Shown here piece after piece: positions 24,792 through 26,737 of a DNA stretch of 34,527 bases; the stretch's first letter is position 1; the number at the start of each line of letters is the position of its first letter. Source of the stretch: a virus. The stretch covers positions 1 through 34,527 of IMG/VR virus record IMGVR_UViG_3300028274_000025; one strand, written 5' to 3'. The notes under the pieces are model-generated. The model saw only the letters and a list, made by a program, of their open reading frames with translations. It ran no database searches and was not told the DNA's origin. A program made the translations under genes and the position numbers.

Positions 24792-24918
24792 TAGTCACCT
24801 CCATTTCACGCCTTTTCTTAAATGACTCCCATAGCTCAATAAGTATCTCGGCCTGAAAGAAGTTAATACCGTCTACCTGCGGAGTCATTTTCATTAACTC
24901 CCAAAATTCTCTATCCAT
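24778..24918 (-). CDS. Short acidic helical protein
   Basis: This 46-aa frame begins MDREFWELMKMTPQVDGINF and ends FKKRREMEVTNAKT. It has GGGAG five bases before its ATG, overlaps the ABC-GNAT stop by 8 bases and the next start by 14, and has no other claim on its DNA. It is helix-prone with no Cys or known motif. The context of coupled overlaps on both sides supports translation; the role is unknown. Confidence 0.6.
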   Translation of the reverse strand: MDREFWELMKMTPQVDGINFFQAEILIELWESFKKRREMEVTNAKT

Positions 24919-25996
24919 TACAACTCCCTATATATTCGTGTGAGTAACACAATCTACTCAGGTGTTTTTTATAATATTCTGATGAAAAGCCTCCAAATGC
25001 CTGCTTCCCGTCACCAAGCCTTTCTGCGACTGCCTTGTATGACGTTCTTGACACTAGATTTGTTGATGTTGCCCTCCACCTACCATCTTTCTGTCTACTT
25101 TCGCCAAGTTTGGGATGGGCAGTTTTAGAGAAGTATCTACATCCCTCATCAATAAAGAACTGTGCGACTGTATTGCTTAACGCCTTACCAACTCCAAGCC
25201 CTTGAAATTCTGGAAGTATAACCACTCTTGATTCCCTCCACGCATTCTTCAAGTCTCTACTTGGGAATACTAATGATGCCACAAAGCCGACCTTTACATT
25301 TCCCCACCACGCTATCCAACACCGACTACTTTTATTGATATTGGCGCTTAGATAATGATGCTTTGAGAACGCCTTCCACTCGGAATAGTGGCATGGGGTG
25401 ACATCAATTTCGATTCGCGGGAATTGCCGAAGGAACCCCCTTGGTATGAACTCACCCTTGCTTGCATCAAACACCCAGTCTGGGTCAAGCCAGTCTATCA
25501 CATCATAATGACATGTTGACAAAACAACTCCTGTTATTCCAGCCTTGCGAACATAAATACTTAGTGATTTTGATATTGACTTTGCCGTTGCTCTGTCTAC
25601 TGTGCTTGTAAACTCGTCAATAACCGCATCGTCACCAATCGCCATCGCTATGTCAGCCCTGTGTTGTTCTCCTGTACTCAAGAGGCGATGCGGTAAACAC
25701 CACGCTGGGACAGAACTTAACCCACAATGATTTAGTTTATCAACTCCAATCTTCTCAGTTTCAAATTCAGATAATATTGGTAACGTCATGCTCCAGTCGC
25801 GCTTTGGAGTTACATTGTAATTACGCCTAAGTATAGTTGTCTTCCCACTACCACTATTACCAACGATAAGACCGATGCCCCAACTACCATCCTGCTTTAC
25901 GGTATTAAAATTAGGCGCATCAAAGGATTGGTCTGATGTAGGTATATAATCAAATGGCGCACAAGCCTCAATTAATCCTTTTGTTATTGTTATCAC
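24911..25996 (-). CDS. ABC-type ATPase fused to a GNAT acetyltransferase
   Basis: A 361-aa two-domain protein. Residues 1-185 are an ABC ATPase head: Walker A GNSGSGKTT (46-54), signature LSTGEQ (106-111), Walker B AVIDEF (124-129) and switch His 163 (STCHYD). Residues 195-330 are GNAT-like: FSKHHYLSANINKSSRCW, then VVILPEFQGLGVGKAL (acetyl-CoA loop 265-271). An HHY motif followed by a one-domain transferase resembles the Mom family, which modifies adenine in phage Mu DNA, so a base-modification role is likely but not proven. No transporter subunit is present, so the ATPase acts on something else, perhaps DNA scanning. The GTG start has GGGAG seven bases upstream. Confidence 0.85.
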   Translation of the reverse strand: MITITKGLIEACAPFDYIPTSDQSFDAPNFNTVKQDGSWGIGLIVGNSGSGKTTILRRNYNVTPKRDWSMTLPILSEFETEKIGVDKLNHCGLSSVPAWCLPHRLLSTGEQHRADIAMAIGDDAVIDEFTSTVDRATAKSISKSLSIYVRKAGITGVVLSTCHYDVIDWLDPDWVFDASKGEFIPRGFLRQFPRIEIDVTPCHYSEWKAFSKHHYLSANINKSSRCWIAWWGNVKVGFVASLVFPSRDLKNAWRESRVVILPEFQGLGVGKALSNTVAQFFIDEGCRYFSKTAHPKLGESRQKDGRWRATSTNLVSRTSYKAVAERLGDGKQAFGGFSSEYYKKHLSRLCYSHEYIGSCNG

Positions 25997-26329: not shown

Positions 26330-26737
26330 TTATAATCTCTTAAAAATTGCAAAAAACTGGCTCAAAGTTACCAATACCATTTCGGTACGGTTTCCATCAC
26401 CGCCCATGACGCGTCTTGTCTCTATTGACTTCAGAAATGTCTTTAATTCTTGTGTTCGTACATACCAAAATGCCGATACGCCATCCAAGACATAGACATA
26501 TATATCCGAATCAGTAGTAGACAGCCCCGTTGGTTTTCCATCTCTGCGTATCTCAATAGCAATGTTACCAGTCTCTTGCCACTTTCTGTCGGTCTTGACC
26601 TCTACCATCACTTCGTATCTTAAGTCTCCAGATGCGTCATTTATGGACGTAGAATTGATACCCTCTAGCTCAAGATGGTGCTTTAATAGAAACTCACTGG
26701 CATTTCCAAATTCAAGGTCTTCCTTAAATGCGTTCAT
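26330..26737 (-). CDS. PD-(D/E)XK nuclease-like protein
   Basis: A 135-aa product with a phage restriction-like nuclease pattern. An N-terminal helix (FGNASEFLLKHHLELEG) precedes D38 (GDLRYEV), then E46-V-K48 (VEVKTD) and a conserved block ETGNIAIEIRRDGKPTGLST (55-74). These residues would bind metal and cut DNA. It may help process replication or recombination intermediates. A ribosome site AGGTAAGG precedes the ATG. An open frame upstream ends in an ATGA overlap with this start, but I do not accept it as a gene. Confidence 0.75.
   Translation of the reverse strand: MNAFKEDLEFGNASEFLLKHHLELEGINSTSINDASGDLRYEVMVEVKTDRKWQETGNIAIEIRRDGKPTGLSTTDSDIYVYVLDGVSAFWYVRTQELKTFLKSIETRRVMGGDGNRTEMVLVTLSQFFAIFKRL

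What the first reader, a model, noticed from the sequence alone, without database searches (positions are those of the whole stretch)
24911..25996. ABC ATPase-GNAT fusion, a candidate DNA base-modification enzyme
One chain carries a full ABC ATPase head (Walker A, signature, Walker B, switch His) and a GNAT domain with an HHY motif and acetyl-CoA loop. Phage Mu Mom is a GNAT-fold enzyme that modifies adenine. A one-protein version coupled to an ATPase in a lytic phage, in an operon with a 46-aa helical gene, a Cys-rich gene and a 70-aa gene and with its own candidate promoter, may be a compact DNA-modification or anti-restriction system. Domain order and motifs are seen; the Mom-like role is inferred.
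Basis: partly seen in the sequence, partly recalled or inferred. Interest (0 to 1): 0.75.

Follow-up and report, generated by a model that had tools for sequence, protein, structure and literature searches.

The report
Phage ATPase-acyltransferase, probably modifies phage DNA
This phage gene encodes an ATP-driven enzyme that probably attaches a small chemical group to the phage's own DNA to shield it from bacterial restriction enzymes; it belongs to a large family already predicted to do this, and some close relatives sit in exactly the genome slot where sister phages keep the known DNA-modifying gene mom.

Summary
Window 24911-25996(-) is an intact 361-aa protein: a compact ABC ATPase head fused to a GNAT domain, with every catalytic motif invariant across 43 aligned sequences. 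It belongs to phrog_11143 (E 4e-99), a widespread phage family for which Iyer and Aravind had already predicted 'acyl modification of a DNA base'. The specific claim that it is Mom-related is not supported: no match to the Pfam Mom family, negligible profile similarity, nearest folds generic GNATs. The claim that it works like Mom gains real support from relatives. In sibling Mu-like Porphyromonas phages the right-end slot holds either a true Mom or ABC-GNAT plus a formyltransferase, between flanks about 82-91% identical in DNA. The same ParB-like gene lies directly upstream of ABC-GNAT (132 of 205 loci) and of Mom (65 of 93), and that domain is also fused to phage DNA methyltransferases. Two clades add enzymes that could supply or decorate the acyl group: PanD plus a class-III CoA-transferase, or a formyltransferase. 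The window copy is the solo type. Its 46-, 89- and 70-aa neighbours are conserved in no other locus examined, and the promoter is no better than chance. Function remains untested.

The parts
24911..25996 (-). ABC ATPase-GNAT fusion protein, 361 aa, GTG start; member of phrog_11143
25427..25996 (-). Compact ABC ATPase head, about residues 1-190
   Evidence: fold matches to MJ0796 and other ABC ATPases, Z 12.5-13.5; motifs invariant
25838..25861 (-). Walker A, residues 46-53 GNSGSGKT
   Evidence: G46, S48, G49, G51, K52 invariant
25667..25681 (-). ABC signature, residues 106-110 LSTGE (family LSNGE)
   Evidence: L106, S107, G109 invariant
25613..25627 (-). Walker B and catalytic Glu, residues 124-128 (D127, E128)
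   Evidence: invariant
25508..25510 (-). Switch histidine H163 in the family motif CHYDVIDW
   Evidence: invariant
24923..25414 (-). GNAT acyltransferase domain, residues about 195-358
   Evidence: PF00583 E 4e-9; GNAT folds Z up to 14.1
25352..25360 (-). HHY motif, residues 213-215; H214-Y215 weakly aligned by hhalign with the invariant H-Y-S of Mom
25187..25204 (-). Acyl-CoA pyrophosphate loop, residues 265-270 QGLGVG
   Evidence: G266 and G268 invariant, Q265 94%

Best explanation
It is a phage nucleic-acid acyltransferase that most likely acylates an exocyclic amino group of bases in the phage's own DNA, so that restriction enzymes no longer cut it. Proposed mechanism: (1) ATP drives head-to-head dimerisation of two ABC heads, as in other soluble ABC ATPases, and this clamps double-stranded DNA; (2) each head presents its GNAT domain to a base; (3) the GNAT takes an acyl group from an acyl-CoA held by the QGLGVG loop and transfers it to the base amine, with the H-Y pair at the active site; (4) ATP hydrolysis resets the clamp. 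The window copy is of the solo type, without ParB or a donor enzyme, so it probably uses a host acyl-CoA. Shown here: domain make-up, intact and invariant motifs, predicted folds, family membership, and the Mom swap and ParB sharing in relatives. Inferred: DNA as target, the base, the acyl group, clamp mechanics and the anti-restriction benefit.
For: 1) Published prediction for this family, with Tenacibaculum phage pT24 as example (PMC7824862); the pT24 locus matches the window protein at 37.7% over 94%. 2) Allelic swap: Mu-like Porphyromonas phages 008a, 009a and 006a carry ABC-GNAT plus formyltransferase, and 012a a true Mom (PF25680 E 5.9e-56), in one right-end slot between a tail gene 85-88% identical in DNA and a terminal end 82-83% identical. 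This is where com-mom lies in Mu. Mu-like Komp_PAO1_1 also has the pair after its tail-fibre genes. 3) A ParB-like gene lies directly upstream of ABC-GNAT in 132 of 205 non-redundant loci and of Mom in 65 of 93; the Jace and Appa ParBs both score best against phrog_723, and both match the N-terminus of phrog_498 DNA methyltransferases. ParBc proteins also accompany the experimentally shown DNA modifier CmoX (PMC12783734). 4) Adjacent PanD, class-III CoA-transferase or formyltransferase genes fit acyl-donor supply or decoration. 5) All ATPase and CoA-loop residues conserved.
Against: No biochemical test exists in what I could read. The GNAT domain has no sequence link to Mom and its nearest folds are N-terminal or small-molecule acetyltransferases. 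Swap and ParB evidence come from other clades: in the window's own clade (at least 40% identity) ParB is adjacent in only 6 of 52 loci and no donor enzyme is seen. Aeromonas phage PX29 carries both a Mom and an ABC-GNAT, so the two are not strictly redundant.
Confidence: 0.62

Rival explanations
1. A protein acetyltransferase acting on a host or phage protein (RNA polymerase, a ribosomal protein or the terminase), with the ABC head as an allosteric or recruiting module.
For: The closest solved folds are RimI, Naa50 and other N-terminal acetyltransferases. Phage GNATs that modify RNA polymerase are known (Rac, described in PMC7824862). In many relatives the gene sits next to terminase genes.
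Against: Fold similarity is shared by the whole GNAT superfamily, and a profile of the domain finds no PDB sequence at E 0.01 or better. A protein acetylase does not explain replacement of Mom in the same slot or the ParB partner shared with Mom and DNA methyltransferases.
Confidence: 0.17
2. An RNA (tRNA or rRNA) acyltransferase, analogous to the ATP-dependent tRNA cytidine acetyltransferase TmcA, protecting phage translation from host RNA-targeting defences.
For: The combination of ATPase and GNAT on one chain resembles TmcA (own knowledge, not tested here).
Against: TmcA's ATPase is helicase-like, not ABC (own knowledge). Links to ParB, terminase and the mom slot point to DNA.
Confidence: 0.08
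3. A DNA-marking enzyme whose acyl mark serves packaging or self-recognition by terminase rather than anti-restriction.
For: The order HNH - ParB - ABC-GNAT - TerS - TerL recurs in many loci.
Against: The Mom-slot relatives and Jace are not next to terminase large subunit genes, and Mom in Mu is an anti-restriction gene (own knowledge). In the window the gene is far from the terminase at 547-2139.
Confidence: 0.1
4. An ordinary transporter-type ABC ATPase or an accidental fusion without a shared function.
For: Many relatives are annotated as ABC transporter or siderophore transporter.
Against: The fusion or strict gene pair recurs across more than 200 non-redundant loci, with both domains catalytically intact in the 43 aligned; no permease lies nearby in the window.
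Confidence: 0.03

Closest known systems
ABC ATPase-coupled GNAT DNA-modification system predicted by Iyer and Aravind (example: Tenacibaculum phage pT24); PHROG family phrog_11143
   Same: Same domain order, same family by full-length profile (E 4e-99) and 37.7% identity to pT24
   Different: The window copy belongs to a mostly solo clade without ParB and is one chain; in the pT24 record the ORF is annotated in two pieces
Mom of phage Mu and the Mom family (Pfam PF25680, phrog_1384; structure 8bv8)
   Same: GNAT superfamily; an H-Y pair weakly aligned with Mom's invariant H-Y-S; relatives share Mom's genome slot and its ParB partner
   Different: No sequence-family relationship; has an ABC head that Mom lacks and a canonical CoA loop
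ParB-domain DNA methyltransferases of phages (phrog_498)
   Same: The same ParB-like domain accompanies a DNA-modifying enzyme
   Different: The modifier is a methyltransferase; the window has no ParB
RimI / Naa50 / IAA acetyltransferase GNATs (1y9k, 5isv, 6yzz)
   Same: Closest solved folds, Z about 13-14 over 135-140 residues
   Different: 7-15% identity, no profile match, no ABC head

Membership tests
phrog_11143 / ABC-GNAT system of Iyer and Aravind | Full-length profile match over both domains | tested here: met
   E 3.8e-99, residues 34-358
phrog_11143 / ABC-GNAT system of Iyer and Aravind | Intact ABC ATPase catalytic residues | tested here: met
phrog_11143 / ABC-GNAT system of Iyer and Aravind | GNAT fold with acyl-CoA loop | tested here: met
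   PF00583 E 4e-9, fold, QGxG loop
phrog_11143 / ABC-GNAT system of Iyer and Aravind | ParB-like gene directly upstream (common, not universal, so not strictly defining) | tested here: not met
   no ParB match in any window ORF; common in other clades
phrog_11143 / ABC-GNAT system of Iyer and Aravind | DNA acyl modification activity | not testable with these tools
   needs nucleoside mass spectrometry; not shown for any member in the papers held
Mom (PF25680) | Match to the Mom family profile | tested here: not met
   not among Pfam matches at E up to 1; three true Moms match at 1.6e-46 to 2.4e-75
Mom (PF25680) | Profile-profile similarity to Mom | tested here: not met
   hhalign probability 2.4%, E 0.019, 64 columns
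Mom (PF25680) | Structural similarity to Mom crystal structure 8bv8 | tested here: inconclusive
   8bv8 is not among the rows shown; one Mom model appears at rank 42 in BFVD, E 3e-4, among many generic GNATs
Mom (PF25680) | Invariant H-Y-S motif | tested here: inconclusive
   H214-Y215 conserved and aligned with it, but followed by Leu
Mom (PF25680) | Adenine methylcarbamoylation | not testable with these tools
   needs nucleoside mass spectrometry
ABC transporter ATPase | Membrane permease partner | tested here: not met
   neighbouring genes are RusA, M15 peptidase, phosphoesterase and small proteins

The most novel reading that the evidence does not exclude
The family is a modular phage DNA-acylation toolkit: one ABC-clamped GNAT core, with clades that make their own donors. 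In one clade PanD makes beta-alanine and a class-III CoA-transferase activates it, giving beta-alanyl bases; in another a folate-dependent formyltransferase formylates the attached group or its donor; the window's clade runs on a host acyl-CoA. The core can replace Mom gene for gene. These base modifications would be new as far as I know.
Probability: 0.35. Interest if true: 0.82.

Novelty: new member of a known kind. Interest (0 to 1): 0.5.

Why it matters
The ABC-GNAT family was predicted to modify DNA but, in the papers I could read, is untested and lacks a named modification. Cultured phages carry each subtype (Jace: PanD type; Yago84 and Komp_PAO1_1: formyl type; P12024S: solo; LE4: ParB without donor enzyme), so mass spectrometry of virion DNA can now test it directly. 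The Porphyromonas swap gives a natural near-isogenic comparison with Mom. If true, it adds several unknown base modifications that block restriction and could foil sequencing or nuclease-based tools.

Tried and rejected
Neighbour genes as system parts: the 46-, 89-, 70-, 126- and 135-aa window proteins have no homologue beside ABC-GNAT in about 330 loci, so I dropped the 'compact operon' idea. Promoter: at chance level. Mom homology: Pfam, hhalign and fold searches gave no specific link; the absence of 8bv8 from the fold lists is not proof. The PanD and formyltransferase scans of viral contigs found few loci. Iyer et al. 2013 (NAR, doi 10.1093/nar/gkt573) is not held, so I cannot tell whether the ParB, PanD or formyltransferase links were already described there. 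Paper searches for those combinations found no report. N-terminal extensions of 500-600 aa in some loci look like ORF-calling artefacts in GC-rich DNA. PADLOC matches (mad3) cover only the ABC motif.

Full report
WHAT IS THERE. The ORF at 24911-25996(-) encodes 361 aa from a GTG with a purine-rich stretch before it. Pfam finds a GNAT domain (PF00583, E 4e-9) and weak P-loop/ABC matches. PHROGs gives a full-length match to phrog_11143, E 4e-99, function unknown. In an alignment with 42 relatives from viral contigs, the Walker A, signature, Walker B, D-loop and switch-histidine residues are invariant, as are W207, F210, Y215, R257, P262, G266 and G268 of the GNAT. AlphaFold2 gives mean pLDDT 86 for the whole chain and 90 for the GNAT alone. 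The N-terminal domain matches ABC ATPases such as MJ0796 (Z 13.5) and the C-terminal one matches GNATs such as 1y9k, RimI and Naa50 (Z 13-14). Only about 53 residues separate Walker A from the signature, so the helical subdomain is short.

KNOWN FAMILY. Relatives at 30-45% identity occur in 60 records of the phage collection (about 50 cover both domains) and in several hundred viral contigs. Firmicutes phages encode the two domains as adjacent genes (P335 Orf24/Orf25). [quoted passage not shown] pT24 is a direct relative of the window protein. The idea is therefore not new, and the window protein is a further member.

IS IT A MOM? Not by descent, as far as can be tested. The window protein lacks the Pfam Mom profile PF25680, which true Moms match at 1e-46 or better. 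Profile-profile comparison gives probability 2.4%, although it pairs the HHY region with Mom's invariant H-Y-S. Fold searches list generic GNATs first; a Mom model is rank 42 among viral models.

DOES IT WORK LIKE A MOM? Three lines from relatives say probably. First, position. In Mu, mom is the last gene at the right end. In Mu-like Porphyromonas phages 008a, 009a and 006a the last substantial genes are ABC-GNAT and a formyltransferase, while sibling 012a has a true Mom there. DNA alignment of 012a with 008a shows 88-91% identity up to the end of the tail gene and 82% over the last 93 bp, with unrelated sequence in the slot between. Mu-like Komp_PAO1_1 has the same pair just after its tail-fibre genes. 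Second, partner. A ParB-like gene lies within 200 nt upstream in 132 of 205 non-redundant ABC-GNAT loci. A profile built from these ParBs finds one directly upstream of Mom in 65 of 93 loci (Mom loci were not made non-redundant). The ParB of Jace (ABC-GNAT) and that of Appa (Mom) have the same best PHROG, phrog_723, and both match the N-terminal part of phrog_498 DNA methyltransferases. ParBc proteins also accompany CmoX, an experimentally shown cytosine modifier (PMC12783734). Chemically different DNA modifiers thus share one ParB partner. Third, donors. Some clades carry, overlapping or just after the GNAT stop, a formyltransferase (31 of 217 loci) or PanD with a class-III CoA-transferase (PanD in 9 loci, CoA-transferase in 13). 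PanD keeps its self-cleavage Gly-Ser, and the shortened CoA-transferase keeps a conserved G-D-T motif that I take, from memory, to hold the catalytic Asp. On a tree of 157 sequences each partner type falls on one side of a branch with support 100 when compared with the other (FastTree, local support only).

LIMITS FOR THE WINDOW COPY. The window's clade is mostly solo: ParB is adjacent in 6 of 52 loci and donor enzymes in none, and no ParB is present in the window. So for this copy the role is carried over from relatives at 30-45% identity.

MECHANISM. Best reading: ATP-dependent dimerisation of ABC heads clamps DNA and presents two GNAT sites, which acylate base amines from an acyl-CoA. Dimer, clamp, DNA target, base and acyl group are all inferred. 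In the formyl type, the partner's homology to enzymes acting on 10-formyl-THF, including glycinamide ribonucleotide transformylase, makes formylation of an attached aminoacyl group a reasonable guess; in the PanD type, a beta-alanyl donor is the simplest guess. PanD could instead just raise CoA supply.

VERDICT. Real, intact, and a member of a large, previously predicted but uncharacterised phage DNA-modification family. The support found here (Mom swap, shared ParB, donor modules) makes the prediction directly testable in cultured phages. I could not read the 2013 paper, so priority for these context findings is unsettled.

Noticed in passing
L092 32470-32565 and L339 (BK068091 32470-32566): Between the tail gene and the ABC-GNAT/formyltransferase pair of Porphyromonas phages 008a and 009a (99.7% identical in this region) lies a segment of about 95 bp with inverted-repeat arms whose core is inverted between the two phages: an invertible, possibly phase-variable, switch just upstream of the modification genes.
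   Followed up: partly
L018 4932-8192, L085 5426-8191: PanD (aspartate decarboxylase) and a shortened class-III CoA-transferase encoded directly after ABC-GNAT, in L018 between two tandem ABC-GNAT copies; annotated phage 'aspartate decarboxylase' genes may belong to DNA modification rather than host metabolism.
   Followed up: yes
L086 5984-6601, L087 1823-2473: Phage genes annotated as phosphoribosylglycinamide formyltransferase or tRNA-methyltransferase overlap the ABC-GNAT stop; they are probably tailoring enzymes of this system.
   Followed up: yes
window 26330-26737 (-): 135-aa protein (phrog_13596, unknown function) with a D...E-V-K pattern reminiscent of PD-(D/E)xK nucleases, two genes upstream; not conserved next to ABC-GNAT.
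   Followed up: partly
L341 4136-5288: Microbacterium phage Appa: ParB-like gene overlapping a true Mom; ParB-Mom pairs are common in viral contigs (65 of 93 loci).
   Followed up: yes
BFVD A0A8S5PZ92 (Siphoviridae sp. ctG0D7): A 214-aa protein named aspartate 1-decarboxylase is the third-best viral fold match to the GNAT domain, suggesting a mislabelled GNAT or a GNAT-PanD fusion.
   Followed up: no
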